Of a DNA stretch of 34,171 bases, positions 6,429 through 31,895 are shown piece by piece. Below the pieces are notes generated by a model. The model was not told the DNA's origin. It searched no databases and was given only the letters and a program-made list of their open reading frames with translations. The stretch comes from Rhodocyclaceae bacterium (GTDB taxonomy: Bacteria; Pseudomonadota; Gammaproteobacteria; Burkholderiales; Rhodocyclaceae): NCBI GenBank assembly GCA_024709955.1, contig JANJVS010000168.1, forward strand, positions 1-34,171, in the 5' to 3' direction. How positions within the stretch are numbered: the stretch's first letter is position 1; each line of letters begins with the position of its first letter. The position numbers and the translations under genes are program-made.

Positions 6429-6889
6429 GGAAGTCCGCCAGGCAGCCGCGGCACGGCAACGTGTCGAGGAAAGTCCGGGCCCCATAGAGCAGGATGCCGG
6501 CTAACGGCCGGGCGCCGCGAGGCGACAGACAGTGCAACAGAAACATACCGCCGATGGCCGCCCCGACTTTGACGCCGCAAGGCGGCAGAGCCTCGCTCTT
6601 GAGTGAGCAGGGACGGATCAGGCAAGGGTGAAATCGTGGCCTGTCGAAAGACAGGACAAGTCGCGAAAGCGATTTGCGGTAAGAGCGCACGGTCGTACTG
6701 GCGACAGCTACGACGGGCAAACCTCATCCGGGGCAAGGCCAAATAGGGGAGCATCGACGTGGCTCGCGTCGCTCCCGGGTAGGCTGCTACAGCCTGTCGG
6801 CGACGGCAGGCGACGAGGCCGCCAGCAATGGTGGTCCCAGAGGAATGGCTGCCCACGACAGAACCCGGCTTATCGGCGGACTTCCCCCC
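6429..6889 (+). ncRNA. rnpB: RNase P RNA (type A), enlarged
   Basis: The conserved core is plain: GAGGAAAGTCCGGGC (6464 on), ATAGAGCAGGATGCCGG, CAGTGCAACAGAAA, GGTAAGAGCGCAC, GGCAAGGCCAAATAGGGG, and CCACGACAGAACCCGGCTTATCG. The ends are fixed by a perfect 11-bp P1 helix between 6429-6439 and 6875-6885. At about 460 nt it is longer than the 377-nt E. coli RNA. Two places account for the excess: an expanded arm at about 6555-6615 with hairpins at 6574-6586 and near 6591-6606, and a 38-nt insertion at about 6639-6676. That insertion splits the 5' strand of the helix before GGTAAGAG and holds two GAAA-capped hairpins (6640-6655 and 6661-6672). The RNA processes the 5' ends of tRNA precursors. No clear terminator follows. 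Confidence 0.95.
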
Positions 6890-14568: not shown

Positions 14569-15968
14569 ATCTGGCGGAAAAACACGTCCTCGTCCTCGGC
14601 CTCGGCGAATCCGGGCTGGCCTGCGCGCGCTGGTGCGCGCGCAACGGCGCGCGCGTGCGCGTCGCCGACACGCGCGCCGCGCCGCCCTACCTCGACGCGC
14701 TGCGCCAGCGTGTCGCCAGCGCCGAGTTTTGCGTCGCGCGCTTCGACGAGCAGTTCGACAAGGCGCTGCTGGCCGGCATCGACCTGCTGGTGCTGTCGCC
14801 CGGCCTGTCCGGCGGACTGATGGCCGTGATCCACGCGCGCGCGCGGGGCATCCCGGTGGTCGGCGAGATCGAACTGTTCGCCCAGGGCCTGCGCGCGCTG
14901 GAACAGCGCGTGCCGGTGCTGGCGATCACCGGCACCAACGGCAAGACGACAACGACCGCGCTCACCGGCCATCTGGTCGCCGCGACGGGACGCAGTGTCG
15001 GCGTGGCCGGCAACATTTCGCCGGCCGCGCTGACGGCGCTGATGGAATGCCAGGACGCCGGCGCGCTGCCCCAGGCCTGGGTACTCGAACTGTCGAGCTT
15101 CCAGCTCGAAACCACCGAATCGCTGGGCGCGGCGGCCGCCACCGTGCTCAACATCTCCGACGACCATCTCGACCGCTACATCGACCTGGCCGACTACGCC
15201 AGCGCCAAGGCGCGCATCTTCCTCGGCGAAGGCGCGCAGGTGCTCAACCGCCAGGACGAGCGCGTCAAGCGCATGGCGATTCCCGGCCGGCCGCTGATTA
15301 CCTTCGGCCTCGACGCGCCGGCCGACGAACGGGATTTCGGCCTGCGCGAGAACCGCGGCGAGCCCTGGCTGGTGCAGGGCGAGCGCTTCCTGCTGCCGGT
15401 GCGCGAGCTGCCGGTCGCCGGCCTGCACAATGCCGCCAACGCCATGGCCGCGCTGGCGCTGTGCGCCGCCATCGGCCTCGACGCCGTCCAGCTGCTGCCG
15501 GCGCTGCGCGCCTTCAAGGGGTTGCCGCATCGCGTCGAGAAGGTCGCCGAGATCGGCGGCGTGCATTATTACGACGACTCGAAGGGCACCAACGTCGGCG
15601 CCACCGTCGCGGCCCTGGAGGGACTCGGCGGCGTCGGCCGCAAGTCGGTGGTGATCCTCGGCGGCGACGGCAAGGGACAGGATTTTTCTCCGCTCAAGGA
15701 CGCCGTGGCGCGCCATGGGCGCGGCGCGGTGCTGCTCGGCCGCGACGGCCCGAAGATCCGCGCCGCCATCGCCGGCTGCGGCGTGCCGCTGCTCGACGCC
15801 GCCACCATGGAAGCGGCGGTGCGCGCGGCCGCCACGCAGGCGCGCGCGGGCGACGCGGTGCTGCTCTCGCCGGCCTGCGCGAGCTTCGACATGTTCCGCA
15901 ACTACGAGCATCGCGCCGAGGTCTTCAAGGCGGCGGTCGCCGCCTTGGCGGCAGGAGCTCAGCCATGA
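14565..15968 (+). CDS. murD: UDP-MurNAc-L-alanine:D-glutamate ligase
   Basis: The protein has 467 residues. Domain 1 has a Rossmann-like start ([16 protein letters not shown]). P-loop [14 protein letters not shown] has its lysine at 127, then [34 protein letters not shown] and [18 protein letters not shown] are MurD signatures. I chose the ATG at 14565 because it overlaps the mraY stop and begins like the family; the much longer frame runs back through mraY. The region encoding VASAEFCV contains a T motif on the opposite strand. The stop overlaps the ftsW start as ATGA. Confidence 0.96.
14706..14731 (-). repeat. T motif copy 3 (inside murD)
   Basis: 22 of 26 matches, of the C variant (AAAACTCGGCGC). 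On the coding strand it is read as QRVASAEFC. This is one of the two weakest copies and could be chance. Confidence 0.5.
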
Positions 15969-17146
15969 TCGCCGCCAGCCTGACGCGCCGCTTCGGCAAT
16001 TCCGCCGCTGGCGCGGCGACCGCCGAGATCGACCCGCTGCTGCTCTGGCCGCCGGTGGCGCTGCTGCTGACGGGGCTGGTGATGGTCTATTCGGCCTCGA
16101 TCGCCACCGCCGAGGGCAGCGCGTTCACGGGCCACCAGCCGGCTTATTTCCTCGTGCGCCACGCGGTCTACCTGACGGTCGGCCTGGTTGCGGCGCTGAT
16201 CGCCTTCCAGGTGCCGCTGCGCTTCTGGCAGCGCAGCGCGCCCTGGCTGTTCCTCGCCGGCGTCGTGTTGCTGGTGGTGGTGCTGCTGCCGGTGATCGGC
16301 CGCTCGGTGAATGGCGCGCAGCGCTGGATCGGCCTTGGCCCGATCAACCTGCAGCCCTCGGAGCTGATGAAGCTGTTCGCCGTGCTCTACGCCGCCGACT
16401 ACACGACGCGCAAGCTGGCGGAGATGGACAGCTTCCGGCGCGGCTTCGTGCCGATGGCGGCGGTGATGGTGCTGGTCGGCGGCCTGCTGCTGCGCGAGCC
16501 GGACTTCGGCGCCTTCGTCGTCATCGTCAGCATCGCCATGGGCGTCCTGTTCCTCGGTGGCATCAACGGCCGCCTGTTCGCGGTGTTGATCGGCGTCATG
16601 GTGGTTGCCTTCGTCGCCCTGATCTGGTCGTCCCCCTACCGGCTGGAGCGCATCACCAGCTACATGGATCCGTGGCAGAACGCCTTCGGCAAGGGCTACC
16701 AGCTCTCCCACGCGCTGATCGCCTTCGGCCGCGGCGAATGGTTCGGCGTCGGCCTCGGTGCCAGCGTCGAGAAGCTGTTCTACCTGCCCGAGGCGCACAC
16801 CGACTTCCTGCTCGCCGTCATCGCCGAGGAACTCGGTTTCGCCGGCGTGGTCGCCGTGGTCGGCCTGTTCGCGCTCCTGGTGCAGCGCTGCTTCGCCGTC
16901 GGCCGCCAGGCGCTGCGGCTCGACCGCGTTTTCTCGGGGCTGGTGGCCCAGGGCATCGGCATCTGGTTCGGCCTGCAATCCTTCATCAACATGGGGGTGA
17001 ACATGGGCCTGCTGCCGACCAAGGGCCTGACCCTGCCGCTGATGAGCTTCGGCGGCTCGGGCATCGTCGCCAACTGCCTGGCGATCGCGGTGTTGCTGCG
17101 CGTGGACTATGAAAACAGAAGACTCATGCGGGGGTTGCCCGCATGA
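15965..17146 (+). CDS. ftsW: Septal peptidoglycan glycosyltransferase FtsW
   Basis: The protein has 393 residues and about ten membrane helices of the SEDS family. Signatures include [79 protein letters not shown] and [17 protein letters not shown]. FtsW polymerises lipid II at the septum with FtsI. I chose the ATG at 15965, overlapping murD. The last eleven codons ([11 protein letters not shown], stop) are odd. They use AGA and CTC, rare in the window, lie in a perfect palindrome, and are repeated with different synonymous codons 104 bp downstream, directly before murG. Confidence 0.95.
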
Positions 17147-17157
17147 GTCTTCTGTTT
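17113..17157. repeat. Perfect inverted repeat over the ftsW stop codon
   Basis: The arms 17113-17132 and 17138-17157 are 20 bp each with no mismatch and a 5-nt loop (GGTTG). The left arm encodes NRRLMR of FtsW; the stop codon is in the right arm. No T-run follows, so it is not a classical terminator, but the transcript would fold strongly. Confidence 0.85.
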
Positions 17158-17215
17158 CGGCGCAGGCTAACTTCGCGCAGCGAAGTTAAGCGAGCACAAG
17201 CGAGCGGCCGGAGGC
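17155..17215 (+). repeat. H element copy A (ftsW-murG spacer)
   Basis: It has flank TTTCGGCGCAGGCTAAC, hairpin with arms 17168-17176 and 17180-17188 (TAACTTCGC / GCGAAGTTA, loop GCA), then GTTAAGCG and CGGCCGGAGGC. Flanks are shared with copies B and C; the stem sequence is different but fully paired. It ends at a CAAAA that leads into the second ftsW tail, where the T motif would be expected. Confidence 0.7.
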
Positions 17216-17250
17216 AAAATCGTCGCCTGATGAGAGGGTTGCCGGCATGA
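17216..17250 (+). pseudogene. Residual second copy of the ftsW 3' end
   Basis: Read from 17218, this stretch encodes [10 protein letters not shown] and a stop, exactly the C-terminus of FtsW, but six of the ten codons differ from the copy at 17114-17146. Its TGA overlaps the murG ATG as ATGA, the arrangement seen at neighbouring junctions. It is therefore probably the ancestral ftsW end, cut off by a 104-bp insertion. It now serves only as the murG leader (GAGAGGG as Shine-Dalgarno). Confidence 0.8.
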
Positions 17251-18305
17251 GCAAAACCATCGTCATCATGGCGGGCGGCACCGGCGGCCACATCATGCCC
17301 GGACTGGCGGTGGCCGACGAGCTCCACCGCCACGGCTGGAAGGTGGTCTGGATGGGCAACCCGGACGGCATGGAGGCGAAGCTGGTGCCCGAGCGCGGCT
17401 ACGAGATGGCCTGGGTGCGTTTCGCCGCGCTGCGCGGCAAGGGCCTGCTGCGCAAGCTGTTGCTGCCCTTCAATCTGCTGCGCGGCTTCTCCCAGGCCCT
17501 GGCACACTTCAAGCACATCCAGCCGGACGTGGTGCTCGGCATGGGCGGCTTCATCAGCTTCCCCGGTGGCATGATGGCGGCGCTCAAGGGCATTCCGCTG
17601 GTGCTGCACGAGCAGAACTCGGTGCCCGGCCTCGCCAACAAGGTGCTGGCGCGGGTGGCCGACCGCGTGCTGACGGGTTTCCCCGATGTTTTCAAGAAGG
17701 GGGCGTGGGTCGGCAATCCGGTGCGCCATCCGATCACCGTCCTGCCAGCGCCGAGTTTGCGCTATGGCGAGCGCACGGGGAAGCTGCGCCTGCTGGTGAT
17801 CGGCGGCAGCCTTGGCGCCCGGGCGCTCAACGAGACGGTGCCGCGCGCGCTGGCCCTGCTGCCGCCGGAGGAGCGGCCCGAGGTGGTGCATCAGGCCGGC
17901 GAAAAGCACATCGAGGCGCTGCGCGCCGCCTATGCGGCGGAGGGCGTCGAAGCCCATGCGACGGCCTTCATCGAGGACATGGCGGGGGCCTACGGCTGGG
18001 CCGACCTGGTGATCTGCCGTGCGGGCGCGCTGACCGTCGCGGAGCTGGCGGCCGTCGGCGTGGCAAGCATCCTGGTGCCCTTCCCCCATGCGGTGGACGA
18101 CCACCAGACTTCGAATGCGCGCTTCCTCGTCCACGCCGGTGCCGCCATGCTGCTGCCGCAGACGGAGCTGACGGTGGAGCGCCTGGCGCTGATTCGCAAC
18201 CTGACGCGCGCGCAGTTGCTCGAAATGGCCGAAAAGGCGCGCGAGCTGGCGCGACTCGAGGCGACTGAGACGGTGGCGAAGGCTTGCCGGGAGATTTGCA
18301 AATGA
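17247..18305 (+). CDS. murG: Lipid II synthase (UDP-GlcNAc transferase) MurG
   Basis: The protein has 352 residues of the GT-B fold. The N-terminal glycine loop MAGGTGGHIMPG (10-15 GGTGGH), GMGGFISFPGG, HEQNSVPGLANK, GGSLGARALNE, CRAGALTVAELAAVG and PFPHAVDDHQTSNA are MurG signatures. It adds GlcNAc to lipid I on the cytoplasmic side of the membrane. The start overlaps the duplicated ftsW tail, 104 bp away from the stop that FtsW now uses, so coupling to ftsW translation may be lost. The stretch encoding TVLPAPSLR contains a T motif on the other strand. Confidence 0.96.
   Translation: MSKTIVIMAGGTGGHIMPGLAVADELHRHGWKVVWMGNPDGMEAKLVPERGYEMAWVRFAALRGKGLLRKLLLPFNLLRGFSQALAHFKHIQPDVVLGMGGFISFPGGMMAALKGIPLVLHEQNSVPGLANKVLARVADRVLTGFPDVFKKGAWVGNPVRHPITVLPAPSLRYGERTGKLRLLVIGGSLGARALNETVPRALALLPPEERPEVVHQAGEKHIEALRAAYAAEGVEAHATAFIEDMAGAYGWADLVICRAGALTVAELAAVGVASILVPFPHAVDDHQTSNARFLVHAGAAMLLPQTELTVERLALIRNLTRAQLLEMAEKARELARLEATETVAKACREICK
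17735..17759 (-). repeat. T motif copy 4 (inside murG)
   Basis: 23 of 26 positions match, with one A missing from the A-run. The match continues 3' as GTGATCGG, as in rsmI. On the coding strand it encodes TVLPAPSL. Confidence 0.65.
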
Positions 18306-18343
18306 ACAGGCATTGCCCATCCACTTGGCCCGACCACCCCCAG

Positions 18344-18363
18344 CCCCTCCTTCGCAGGAGGGG
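18344..18363. repeat. Perfect 8-bp inverted repeat after murG
   Basis: CCCCTCCT and AGGAGGGG are separated by TCGC. It could form an RNA hairpin shortly after the murG stop; no T-run follows within 8 nt apart from CTTT. Confidence 0.6.
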
Positions 18364-18494
18364 AGACTTTGTGCGCGCTGCGCGCGTCCATTACGGGGCG
18401 CGTCCGTTCGGCGTGGGGGCGGGTTGCGCCTGGCGGTGCGTGCCGTTTCGCCCTGGGCGGCCCGGCGGCGAAACTGCTTGGGCCGTGGTTTTAA

Positions 18495-18520
18495 CACCAT
18501 CCCACCGGCGCCGACTTTTG
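18495..18520 (-). repeat. T motif copy 6 (adjacent to H copy C)
   Basis: 23 of 26 matches. On the - strand it directly follows the 3' end of H copy C, the same arrangement as in mtnA. Confidence 0.75.
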
Positions 18521-18575
18521 GTTACGGCCGCTGCGCTTAACCGACTGGCGCCGGTTAGCCTTCACCGAAAGTCGG
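18511..18575 (-). repeat. H element copy C (murG-murC spacer)
   Basis: On the - strand it reads TTTCGGTGAAGGCTAAC, then a 7-bp stem (AACCGGC / GTCGGTT, one G-U pair), then GTTAAGCG and CGGCCGTAACC. The outer arms 18511-18522 and 18564-18575 pair over 12 positions with one wobble or mismatch, so the whole element can fold as one arm with an inner hairpin. It overlaps the first bases of T motif copy 6. Confidence 0.72.
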
Positions 18576-18593
18576 AACAGGCATCGGAACGCG

Positions 18594-18619
18594 CACCGTC
18601 CCGCCAGCGCCGACTTTTG
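18594..18619 (-). repeat. T motif copy 5 (murG-murC spacer, reference copy)
   Basis: This copy is used as the reference: the - strand begins CAAAAGTCGGCGCTGG, then CGGGACGGTG. It stands alone, without an H element next to its 5' side. Confidence 0.8.
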
Positions 18620-18648
18620 GCCCGCTCGTCCCGGGCCGGAGACAAGTC

Positions 18649-20040
18649 ATGAAGCATAAAGTCAAGCGGATTCACTTCGTCGGCGTCGGCGGCGCCGGCA
18701 TGAGCGGCATCGCCGAGGTGCTGGCCAACCAGGGCTTCGAGGTCAGCGGCTCCGACTTGGCGGCCTCGGCGACCACCCAGCGCCTCGCCCAGCAGGGGGT
18801 GCGCGTCGCCATCGGCCATGCGGCCGAGAACGTGCGCGACGCCGACGCCGTGGTCGTATCGACGGCGGTGAAGGAGGACAACCCGGAGGTGGTCGCGGCG
18901 CGCGAGCGCCACGTACCGATCGTGCCGCGCGCCCAGATGCTCGCCGAGCTGATGCGCCTCAAGCAGGGCATCGCCATCGCCGGCACCCACGGCAAGACCA
19001 CCACCACCAGCCTGGTCGCCAGCTGCCTCGCCGAAGGCGGCTTCGACCCGACCTTCGTGATCGGCGGCCGGCTGATCTCGGCGGGCGCCAACGCGCGCCT
19101 CGGCCAGGGCGACTACCTGGTCGCCGAGGCCGACGAGTCCGACGCCTCCTTCCTGTTCCTCTCGCCGGTGATCTCGGTCGTCACCAACATCGACCAGGAC
19201 CACATGGATACCTACGGCCAGGACTTTGGCCGGCTCAAGCAGGCCTTCGTCGATTTCGTCCAGCGCCTGCCCTTCTATGGCGTCGCGGTGATGTGCCTCG
19301 ACGACCCGCACGTGCGCGAGATCCTGCCGGCCGTCGCCAAGCAGGTGGTGACCTATGGCTACGGCGAGGGCGCCAACATCCGCGCCGAGAACGTGCGCGC
19401 CGATGCCGGCCGCATGCACTTCGACTGCGTGCGCACCAACGGCTCGGTGTCGCGCTTTCCGGTCACGCTCAACCTTCCCGGCGAGCACAACGTGCGCAAC
19501 GCGCTGGCGGCGATCGCCGTGGCGACGGAGGTGGGCGCCGACGACGCGGCGATCCAGCGCGCGCTGGCGGAATTCCACGGCGTCGGCCGGCGCTTCCAGC
19601 GCCATGGCGAGATCGCCCTGGCCGGCGGCGGCAGCTTCACGTTGATCGACGACTACGGCCACCATCCGGCCGAGATGGCGGCTACCCTTGCCGCCGCGCG
19701 CGGCGCCTTCCCCGGCCGGCGCATCGTGCTCGCCTTCCAGCCGCACCGCTACACGCGCACCCGCGACTGCTTCGAGGACTTCGTCAAGGTGCTCTCGGCC
19801 GCCGACGCGGTGCTGCTGGCCGAGGTCTATGCGGCGGGCGAGGCGCCCATCGTCGCCGCCGACGGCCGTTCCCTCGCCCGTGCCCTGCGCGTCGCCGGCA
19901 AGGTCGAGCCGATCTTCGTCGAGGACATCGCCGCCATGCCCCAGGCCATTCGCGACGCCGCCCATGACGGCGACGTCGTGATCACCCTCGGCGCCGGCTC
20001 GATCGGCGCGGTGCCCGGCAAGCTGGCGGAGGCGCGCTGA
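18649..20040 (+). CDS. murC: UDP-MurNAc:L-alanine ligase
   Basis: The protein has 463 residues. It begins with [17 protein letters not shown], the UDP-MurNAc-binding glycine loop. P-loop [13 protein letters not shown] has its lysine at 116, and [51 protein letters not shown] and [11 protein letters not shown] are all MurC signatures. It attaches the first peptide residue, L-alanine, in the cytoplasm. The start codon follows the repeat-filled spacer, with GGAG about 9 nt upstream. It overlaps murB by one base (TGATG). Confidence 0.96.
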
Positions 20041-30818: not shown

Positions 30819-30819
<1 letters not shown>

Positions 30820-31895
30820 TGGTGCTGACCACCATCGCGGCGGAGCGGGATGCGGCCGGGCGCTGCGTGCGCATCCTCGATCAGACGCGCCTGCCGCTTG
30901 AAACCGTCTTCGTGCGGCTGGCGACGCTGGAGGACGCCGCCCACGCGATCCGCGTCATGCAGGTGCGCGGCGCGCCGCTGATCGGCGCCACCGCCGCCTA
31001 CGGCGTCGCCCTCGGCCTCCAGCAGGGACTGCCGCTCGACACGGTCGTCGCGACCCTCGCGGCGACGCGTCCGACGGCGGTCAACCTGCACTGGGCGCTC
31101 GCGCGCATGCGCCGCGCGCTGGAAAGCGAAGCTTCGGCGGAGGCTAACATCGGCGGAGCCGATGTTGAGTCGCAAGGCGACGGCCGAAGCCAAAACTCGG
31201 CGCTGGCGGAACGGTGCGCGGCCGCCTGGAACGAGGCGGATGCCATCGCCCACGAGGACGCGGCGGCCAACGCCGCCATCGGCCGCCACGGCTTGGAACT
31301 CCTCAAGCCCATCGCCGCGCGCAAGGGCCGCGTCGCTGTCATGACCCACTGCAACGCCGGCTGGCTCGCCACCGTCGCCCACGGCACGGCGCTTGCCCCG
31401 ATCTACGCGGCCCAGGCCGCCGGCCTGGACGTGCATGTCTGGGTCTCCGAGACGCGGCCGCGCAACCAGGGCCAGCTGACGGCCTGGGAGCTGCGCGAGG
31501 CCGGCGTACCCCATACCTTCATCGCCGACAACGCCGCCGGCCTGCTGCTGATGCAGGGCAAGGTGGACTGCGTGATCGTCGGCGCCGACCGTATCGCCGC
31601 CAACGGCGACACCGCCAACAAGATCGGTACCTATCTGAAAGCGCTGGCGGCACGGGCGCACGGCGTGCCCTTCTACGTCGCCGCGCCGCTATCCACCATC
31701 GACTTCGCCTGTCCCGCCGGCGCGCAGATCCCCATCGAGGAGCGCGCGGCCGAGGAAGTGCTCGCCGGCCCGCTGGCCGGCTTCGCCGCCGTCGCCAATC
31801 CGGCCTTCGACGTCACGCCCGCCGGTCTGATCGCCGGCATCGTCACCGAGCACGGGGTCTTTCCCGCCGCCGGCCTGCGAGCCGCGCAAGGATAA
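30819..31895 (+). CDS. mtnA: S-methyl-5-thioribose-1-phosphate isomerase
   Basis: The protein has 358 residues of the eIF2B-like isomerase family. RGAPLIGATAAYG, the catalytic Cys178 in MTHCNAG and Asp257 in GADRIAANGD, and NKIGTYLKALAA are typical. It converts methylthioribose 1-phosphate, and in some bacteria 5-deoxyribose 1-phosphate, to the ribulose form. Residues 105-133 are a hydrophilic insert with no counterpart I can recall in the family. It is encoded by H element copy B (20 codons) and a T motif, in frame, between two helices of the N-terminal domain. The active site is intact, so the enzyme is probably functional. Confidence 0.94.
31131..31190 (+). repeat. H element copy B (inside mtnA)
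   Basis: It is exactly 60 bp, so it keeps frame. Outer arms 31131-31138 and 31183-31190 (GCTTCGGC / GCCGAAGC) enclose a 9-bp hairpin 31146-31154/31158-31166 (AACATCGGC / GCCGATGTT, loop GGA) and a 5-bp hairpin 31169-31173/31177-31181 (loop AAG). All stems are perfect; the RNA would be a three-way junction. Confidence 0.75.
31191..31216 (+). repeat. T motif copy 8 (inside mtnA)
   Basis: 24 of 26 matches, C variant. It directly follows H copy B and is read as QNSALAERC, a frame different from that in rsmI, murE and the aldolase. Confidence 0.8.

What the first reader, a model, noticed from the sequence alone, without database searches (positions are those of the whole stretch)
17111..17250. 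A 104-bp insertion splits the ftsW/murG overlap and leaves two differently coded copies of the FtsW C-terminus
Seen directly: codons 17114-17146 and 17218-17250 both encode [10 protein letters not shown] plus stop, exactly 104 bp apart with no indel. Six of ten codons differ (AAC/AAT, AGA/CGT, AGA/CGC, CTC/CTG, CGG/AGA, CCC/CCG). The second copy restores the ATGA overlap with murG that neighbouring junctions show, so it looks ancestral, while the copy in use has AGA/CTC codons that are rare here. Between them lies H element copy A. Either an element arrived carrying a recoded ftsW end, as some mobile elements do to spare their target, or recombination with a diverged ftsW allele left a duplicated junction. 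A simple target duplication would not explain the many synonymous differences.
Basis: partly seen in the sequence, partly recalled or inferred. Interest (0 to 1): 0.82.

Follow-up and report, generated by a model that had tools for sequence, protein, structure and literature searches.

The report
Repeat insertion bridged by tiny ORF
A small hairpin repeat of this bacterial group sits between two overlapping cell-wall genes together with a second copy of the first gene's end, and the gap it makes is kept as a tiny open reading frame that probably carries ribosomes from one gene to the next.

Summary
The insert is one of about 46 copies in this genome of a hairpin repeat ("H") without an Rfam match. 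H recurs at the ftsW/murG junction of relatives. In the 13 units examined the order is X1-n-x'-H-X2: X1 is the tail in use, x' pairs with it as a hairpin, X2 is a second tail copy.

The new point: at ftsW/murG junctions with a spacer, H or other repeats alike, an ORF starts in the ftsW stop overlap and ends in the murG start overlap. Of 40 species-deduplicated spacers 38 are in phase and 37 also open (not corrected for ancestry). Gaps of about 20 nt nearly abolish coupling in published reporters, so spacers probably survive as coupled bridging ORFs; X2 is the end of this one.

The recoding is only partly explained: X1-X2 differences concentrate in the 12 nt that pair with x'. Which copy is ancestral is unresolved. 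No Y1 transposase or reverse transcriptase domain was found in this genome.

The parts
15965..17146 (+). ftsW, ending in copy 1 of the tail
   Evidence: TIGR02614
17114..17146 (+). X1, tail copy in use ([10 protein letters not shown])
   Evidence: 17113-17132 is also the left arm of hairpin P1
17113..17157 (+). hairpin P1: 17113-17132 paired with x' (17138-17157), 20 bp, loop GGTTG
   Evidence: over 13 ftsW units pairing is specific to the own locus, 0 of 20000 permutations
17155..17219 (+). H core, repeat element with its own hairpin, 3' end AAAA
   Evidence: R1 80.6 bits; 46 matches at E<=0.1 in the genome, 44 of them below 0.001
17218..17250 (+). X2, second tail copy, carrying the ATGA overlap with murG
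17143..17250 (+). bridging [38 protein letters not shown], from the ftsW stop overlap to the murG start overlap
17247..18305 (+). murG
   Evidence: TIGR01133
18302..18652 (+). second bridging ORF, 116 codons, from the murG stop overlap to the murC start overlap, spanning another H copy
18516..18570 (-). H copy of the T class between murG and murC
31132..31195 (+). H copy inside the mtnA reading frame (30819-31895)

Best explanation
The 104 bp are an insertion of a small non-autonomous hairpin repeat (H) at an AAAA site in the last codons of ftsW, with the target tail present on both sides. The upstream copy (X1) ends FtsW and is folded with x' into a hairpin; the downstream copy (X2) keeps murG's start overlap. 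The insert is retained because it is an open frame from ATGA to ATGA: ribosomes ending ftsW restart, translate a 35-codon peptide across H and X2, end in the murG overlap and restart on murG. X1 and X2 differ mainly where X1 pairs with x', perhaps because copies with identical starts are lost or corrected. Shown: the repeat family, the architecture, the own-locus pairing, the recurrence at this junction, the bridging ORFs. Inferred: retention through translational coupling, the cause of the recoding, and any transposition mechanism.
For: 46 H matches at E<=0.1 in the genome. In 80 ftsW loci of named records (465 kb, E<=0.01) all 10 H matches, in 9 loci, lie at the ftsW/murG junction. 13 ftsW units: X1 pairs own x' at 8.92 of 10 positions, other species' x' at 6.69, 0 of 20000 permutations. 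31 hand-picked units elsewhere: x' pairs own upstream sequence with mean score 10.65 versus 3.70 for others, 0 of 20000. First junction set: 125 loci given, 124 kept, 123 with a murG motif, 86 direct NTGA overlaps, 4 CTGA without spacer, 33 spacers, of which 29 exact bridging ORFs, 2 ORFs overlapping the murG start, 1 relay of two ORFs, 1 failure. Second set: 60 loci, 13 spacers, 12 exact (3 of them species already seen), 1 interrupted by N. Deduplicated: 38 of 40 in phase, 37 in phase and open; chance for phase 1/3. H frame leading into X2 open in 16 of 16 junction units versus 61 of 121 other copies, Fisher 6e-5. PMC10666635 (abstract and section list seen): about 20 nt of intergenic distance nearly abolished coupling in three E. 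coli and three Haloferax pairs.
Against: G079 (L091) has a junction H without a bridging ORF: closed after 10 codons and out of phase, although its H frame alone is open. The bridging statistics are not corrected for shared ancestry. GC-rich spacers are often open by chance (46 of 72 other forward frames, 50 of 108 reverse frames), so phase carries the signal. The second copy also looks coding-like where I read no bridging ORF by eye (gyrB-like end in G008: 7 synonymous, 0 nonsynonymous), which coupling does not explain. At murG/murC 2 of 11 longer junctions are not bridged. That spacers other than H belong to unrelated repeats was judged by eye from their peptides. No expression data.
Confidence: 0.65

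Rival explanations
1. Homing cassette: the mobile unit is X1-n-x'-H, carrying a recoded gene end from a donor, inserted before the native tail X2.
For: x' matches X1 better than X2 (8.92 versus 5.46 of 10); in L211 X2 is the native-like copy (first 12 nt: 1 nt from a 93.1% identical relative, X1 4 nt); L235 carries two units in tandem with differently coded tails.
Against: The last 21 nt of X1 and X2 agree within a genome (2.50 versus 6.69 differences across species, 0 of 20000 permutations); some copies have identical X1 and X2 (L058, L063, L069); in L247 X1 is the native-like copy.
Confidence: 0.2
2. Allelic recombination: H and its duplicated target are older, and exchange with other lineages on the ftsW side or the murG side gave the two copies different synonymous histories.
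For: 71 synonymous versus 20 nonsynonymous changed codons in 19 selected pairs; window ftsW is 87-89% identical to G012 at 16201-17100 but murG 75-80% at 17401-18300; ccmE-like tails in G004 have different ends in their two copies.
Against: Predicts even divergence along the tail, but only the first 12 nt are at the between-species level; x' would first match the replaced copy. Identity to G012 is uneven elsewhere too (78% at 15901-16200, 85% at 17101-17400), so the breakpoint is not sharp.
Confidence: 0.25
3. Plain target duplication followed by neutral drift of the untranslated copy.
For: Identical copies exist (L058, L063, L069); some second copies look degraded (L247; dnaB- and pilT-like ends).
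Against: Window 0 nonsynonymous of 6 changed codons; pooled half-drift model mean 39.8 nonsynonymous codons, observed 20, 0 of 4000 simulations (several degraded copies were left out of that count).
Confidence: 0.1
4. Assembly error at the palindrome.
For: The window is one contig of a 237-contig assembly; a 20-bp hairpin is hard to assemble.
Against: Same architecture at the same junction in other assemblies.
Confidence: 0.02

Closest known systems
Translational coupling by termination-reinitiation at ATGA overlaps (PMC10666635, abstract and section list seen; PMC6728339, listing with the start of its abstract)
   Same: stop-start overlaps at both ends of each bridging ORF; strong dependence on distance
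   Different: here the overlap seems to be preserved across inserted repeats by making the insert itself an ORF
Rickettsia palindromic elements and other small translated repeats (PMC2229807, abstract and section list seen)
   Same: small palindromic repeats found in reading frames (H inside mtnA, 31132-31195)
   Different: many H copies sit at gene ends with a target-specific hairpin arm and a second target copy
REP / IS200-IS605 type hairpin elements (PMC2817692, listing with the start of its abstract; guide mechanism recalled)
   Same: hairpin next to a short stretch that pairs with a flanking site
   Different: pairing up to 21 nt here; no Y1 transposase domain found in this genome
Phages and integrases that restore a gene end on insertion (recalled)
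   Same: host gene end kept intact after insertion
   Different: about 100 bp, no room for an integrase, many different target genes

Membership tests
REP/RAYT or IS200/IS605 element | Y1 transposase in the genome | tested here: not met
   PF01797: 0 matches in G000 and in G002 (42 and 35 H matches); 5 of 19 genus genomes have it, among them G007 with 27 and G009 with 16 H matches; a transposase lost, diverged, or missing from an incomplete assembly is not excluded
REP/RAYT or IS200/IS605 element | hairpin with an adjacent stretch pairing to a flanking site | tested here: met
   x' pairs own X1 in 13 ftsW units, 0 of 20000 permutations; in 31 hand-picked units it pairs own upstream sequence, 0 of 20000
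Retroposed element (SINE-like, target-primed) | reverse transcriptase available | tested here: not met
   PF00078: 0 matches in G000 and G002; 7 of 19 genus genomes have it, G007, G009, G015 and G017 among the carriers of H
Retroposed element (SINE-like, target-primed) | A-rich 3' end and variable-length target duplication starting in A | tested here: met
   H ends in AAAA or similar; identical copies of 38 nt (L069), 79 nt or more (L063) and 88 nt (L058) begin AAAA
Classical MITE | terminal inverted repeats with a short fixed target duplication | tested here: not met
   by eye no common terminal repeats in the gene-end copies; duplicated stretches vary in length
Described structured RNA | match to an Rfam family | tested here: not met
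   no match over H in the window at gathering threshold nor at E<=1 in five loci
Translationally coupled gene pair | stop-start overlap | tested here: met
   NTGA at both ends of the bridging ORF in 29 of 33 spacers and 12 of 13
Translationally coupled gene pair | measured dependence of downstream translation on upstream translation | not testable with these tools
   needs reporters or ribosome profiling

The most novel reading that the evidence does not exclude
H is a self-tailoring element: on insertion it copies the first bases of the target tail in reverse complement (x'), so each copy builds its own hairpin against its host gene; at gene overlaps it then persists only as an in-frame bridging gene, while the two tail copies are driven apart where they pair. 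This would be a general route by which inserted repeats become new small translated genes inside essential operons.
Probability: 0.25. Interest if true: 0.82.

Novelty: new variant of a known kind. Interest (0 to 1): 0.62.

Why it matters
It offers a natural experiment on how strictly ftsW-murG translation is coupled: in the junctions sampled, insertions of different sequence are nearly always kept in a form that links the two overlaps by an ORF. It also suggests a route from selfish repeats to small translated genes (4 to 117 codons in the ftsW/murG sample).

Tried and rejected
Intrinsic terminator: P1 is followed by only three T and lies inside a cell-wall operon; not pursued. attC-like site: GTTAAGC resembles the integron box GTTRRRY (recalled), but the box order and the 65-nt length do not fit. 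Y1 transposase and reverse transcriptase as local mobilisers: absent from the two genomes richest in H, present in some other carriers. Rfam: no match at H. Seven paper searches listed no title or abstract that describes this repeat, bridging ORFs across inserts, or ftsW/murG coupling; an eighth found the general coupling papers. Only listings were seen except PMC10666635 and PMC2229807 (abstracts and section lists).

Rows dropped or chosen. One search used 19 chosen pairs that align in whole codons, frames and gene names read by eye: dnaB-, pilT- and hisE-like ends, L057, L222, L071, L154, L124, L126 and identical pairs were left out, which favours conserved copies; L235 entered twice. One search dropped a 3-nt insertion in L222 X2, used the last copy for L235, and left H-like loci out of the H-free set by a pattern plus three by hand. 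One search left out same-species repeats (L264, L204; L284, L285, L305, judged by identical peptides) and L330 (N gap); it counts L097, whose ORF runs 13 nt past the murG start, as in phase and open, and L260, whose ORF meets murG by a 1-nt overlap, as not open. One search used 31 units picked after seeing the sequences; in several the partner of x' is a local arm and not X1. The marks 'H' come from a crude pattern and include false ones; I used R1 matches for counts. The class-wide search used strict filters that found only 19 of the window genome's 46 copies.

Corrected on the way: I first took X2 as simply native; G012 and L247 contradict that. I misread L210 as out of frame; one search shows it open.

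Full report
Observation. The two tails are as described: 17114-17146 and 17218-17250, both [10 protein letters not shown], 104 bp apart, 9 nt differences in 6 of 10 codons, all synonymous. What lies between is more than a spacer: X1 is in the left arm of a 20-bp hairpin whose right arm (x', 17138-17157) leads into a repeat core, H (17155-17219).

The repeat. A covariance model of seven copies (R1) finds 46 matches at E<=0.1 in this 3.5-Mb genome, 44 of them below 0.001. In 41 genomes (the own one, 18 of its genus, and relatives of its family and order) 20 have matches at E<=1e-4, including two genomes of other families of the same order. Class-wide, with strict filters, 2 of 274 genomes match at E<=1e-6, the own one and one of the same order. 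Named ftsW relatives are mostly titled Rhodocyclaceae or Rhodocyclales. In the own genome 31 of 46 copies are followed by a second repeat motif, (AAAA)GTCGGCGC (T class). Others sit at gene ends read by eye as dnaB, pilT and hisE, and in relatives at ends read as gyrB, ccmE and queF; these names were not tested by a family search.

Architecture. At these gene ends the order is X1-n-x'-H-X2: X1 is the gene's tail, x' the reverse complement of its first bases, X2 a second copy starting at H's terminal A run. For 13 ftsW units X1 pairs its own x' at 8.92 of 10 positions against 6.69 for other species' x' (0 of 20000 permutations); three units pair weakly (L111 and L210 7, L203 6). X2 pairs own x' at 5.46, below the 6.22 of other species (19890 of 20000 permutations reach the observed value), so X2 tends to avoid x'. 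For 31 hand-picked units at other sites x' matches own upstream sequence with mean score 10.65 against 3.70 (0 of 20000). Two species, G004 and G005, have the ccmE-like insertion at the same place; within each genome the two copies agree over at least about 45 nt but differ between the species, and x' follows X1.

Recoding. In 19 selected pairs 71 changed codons are synonymous and 20 are not; a model in which half the changes are unconstrained gives 39.8 nonsynonymous on average and never 20 or fewer in 4000 simulations. For 12 ftsW pairs the first 12 nt of X1 and X2 are about as different within a genome (4.00) as between species (4.21), while the remaining 21 nt are much closer within a genome (2.50 versus 6.69, 0 of 20000 permutations). 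So the recoding is concentrated where X1 pairs with x'. Polarity is mixed: in the window X1 is close to the nearest sister G012 (3 nt; X2 9 nt) while 10 of 17 other genus tails use CGN CGN like X2; in L211 X2 is native-like; in L247 X1 is. Window ftsW and murG also differ in affinity to G012, though not sharply. I take this as a mixture of target duplication, templated or selected change in the pairing segment, and exchange between lineages; no single cause is proved.

Recurrence. Of the first 30 family loci viewed, the window included, 4 have H at the junction (by eye). Of 80 named loci 9 do, and all 10 H matches in those 465 kb are there. Of the 60 loci of the second set 5 do, two of them species already seen. 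Among 18 genus ftsW loci only the window shows it (by eye).

Bridging ORFs. In the window an ORF starts at the ATG overlapping the ftsW stop, runs through x', H and X2, and stops in the ATGA overlapping murG (17143-17250). The same holds for 11 of 12 ftsW loci with H (window included), for the second unit of L235, for both ccmE-like loci, and for L069; G079 is the exception. I then tested ftsW loci regardless of H: 125 given, 124 kept, 123 with a murG motif, same species not removed. 86 have a direct NTGA overlap, 4 have CTGA with the start just downstream, 33 have a spacer. In 29 of 33 an ORF starts in the ftsW stop overlap and ends exactly in the murG start overlap, 2 more overlap the murG start (L097, L260), L235 is a relay of two such ORFs, and G079 fails. 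By eye the spacers belong to several unrelated repeats, so this looks like a property of the junction and not of H. In a second set of 60 loci, fetched to test the prediction, 42 are direct overlaps, 3 have no spacer, 1 ends with its contig, 1 has no recognised murG motif, and of 13 spacers 12 are exact, up to 351 nt; the last has an N gap. Three of the 12 repeat species of the first set. After removing repeated species 38 of 40 are in phase and 37 in phase and open; chance for phase is 1/3, binomial 2.6e-16 without correction for ancestry, and other frames are open in 46 of 72 cases. H itself is open in the frame leading into X2 in 16 of 16 junction units (G079's included) and in 61 of 121 other copies (Fisher 6e-5). 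At murG/murC, in 81 loci of which 74 could be judged, 47 are direct overlaps and 16 have the murC motif within 60 nt; of the other 11, 5 are exact bridges (the window's has 116 codons and spans another H copy), 4 overlap the start and 2 are not bridged.

Mechanism. Published reporter work finds that about 20 nt of intergenic distance nearly abolishes termination-reinitiation in the six pairs tested (PMC10666635, abstract). A non-coding gap of about 100 nt between ftsW and murG should therefore uncouple murG. The simplest reading is that insertions survive here as translated bridges. X2 supplies the end of that bridge and the overlap with murG; X1 ends FtsW. This is inference until murG translation is measured. 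How H moves is unknown: no Y1 transposase or reverse transcriptase domain was found in this genome or in G002, the two richest in H of the 41 searched.

Novelty. Coupling at overlaps and translated small repeats are both known kinds. Their combination, with a target-specific hairpin arm and the bridging rule, did not appear in the listings of seven searches of the open library, which lacks most subscription papers.

Noticed in passing
window 31132-31216: H plus the T motif lies in frame inside mtnA (TIGR00512), coding ASAEANIGGADVESQGDGRSQNSALAER.
   Followed up: partly
window 17731-17758, 14706-14733 and other copies of D3/D9: Solo copies of the T motif occur at several sites; by position the first lies in murG and the second in the murD region.
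   Followed up: no
window 18302-18652: The murG-murC spacer, which holds a T-H-T repeat, is one open frame from ATGA to ATGA.
   Followed up: yes
L127, L116, L134, L118, L136, L139: H sits in partial tRNA gene copies, by eye at the anticodon loop; except in L116 a further copy of at least the tRNA 5' half follows, and in L136 Rfam finds a whole tRNA there. P1 here looks like a simple self-hairpin.
   Followed up: partly
L058 (G002): Five H copies about 145 bp apart in tandem at a gene end read as queF, with a copy of the gene tail in each unit.
   Followed up: partly
L059, L077, L078; L060, L079: H occurs inside larger MITE-like elements, by eye with inverted ends near GAGCTTGTGAAAAATTC in the first three and with different ends in the other two.
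   Followed up: no
L321, L330: Further long junction spacers: L321 has a bridging ORF of 117 codons with repeated peptide stretches; L330 has three H matches and an N gap.
   Followed up: partly
window 6430-6888: RNase P class A RNA (RF00010).
   Followed up: no
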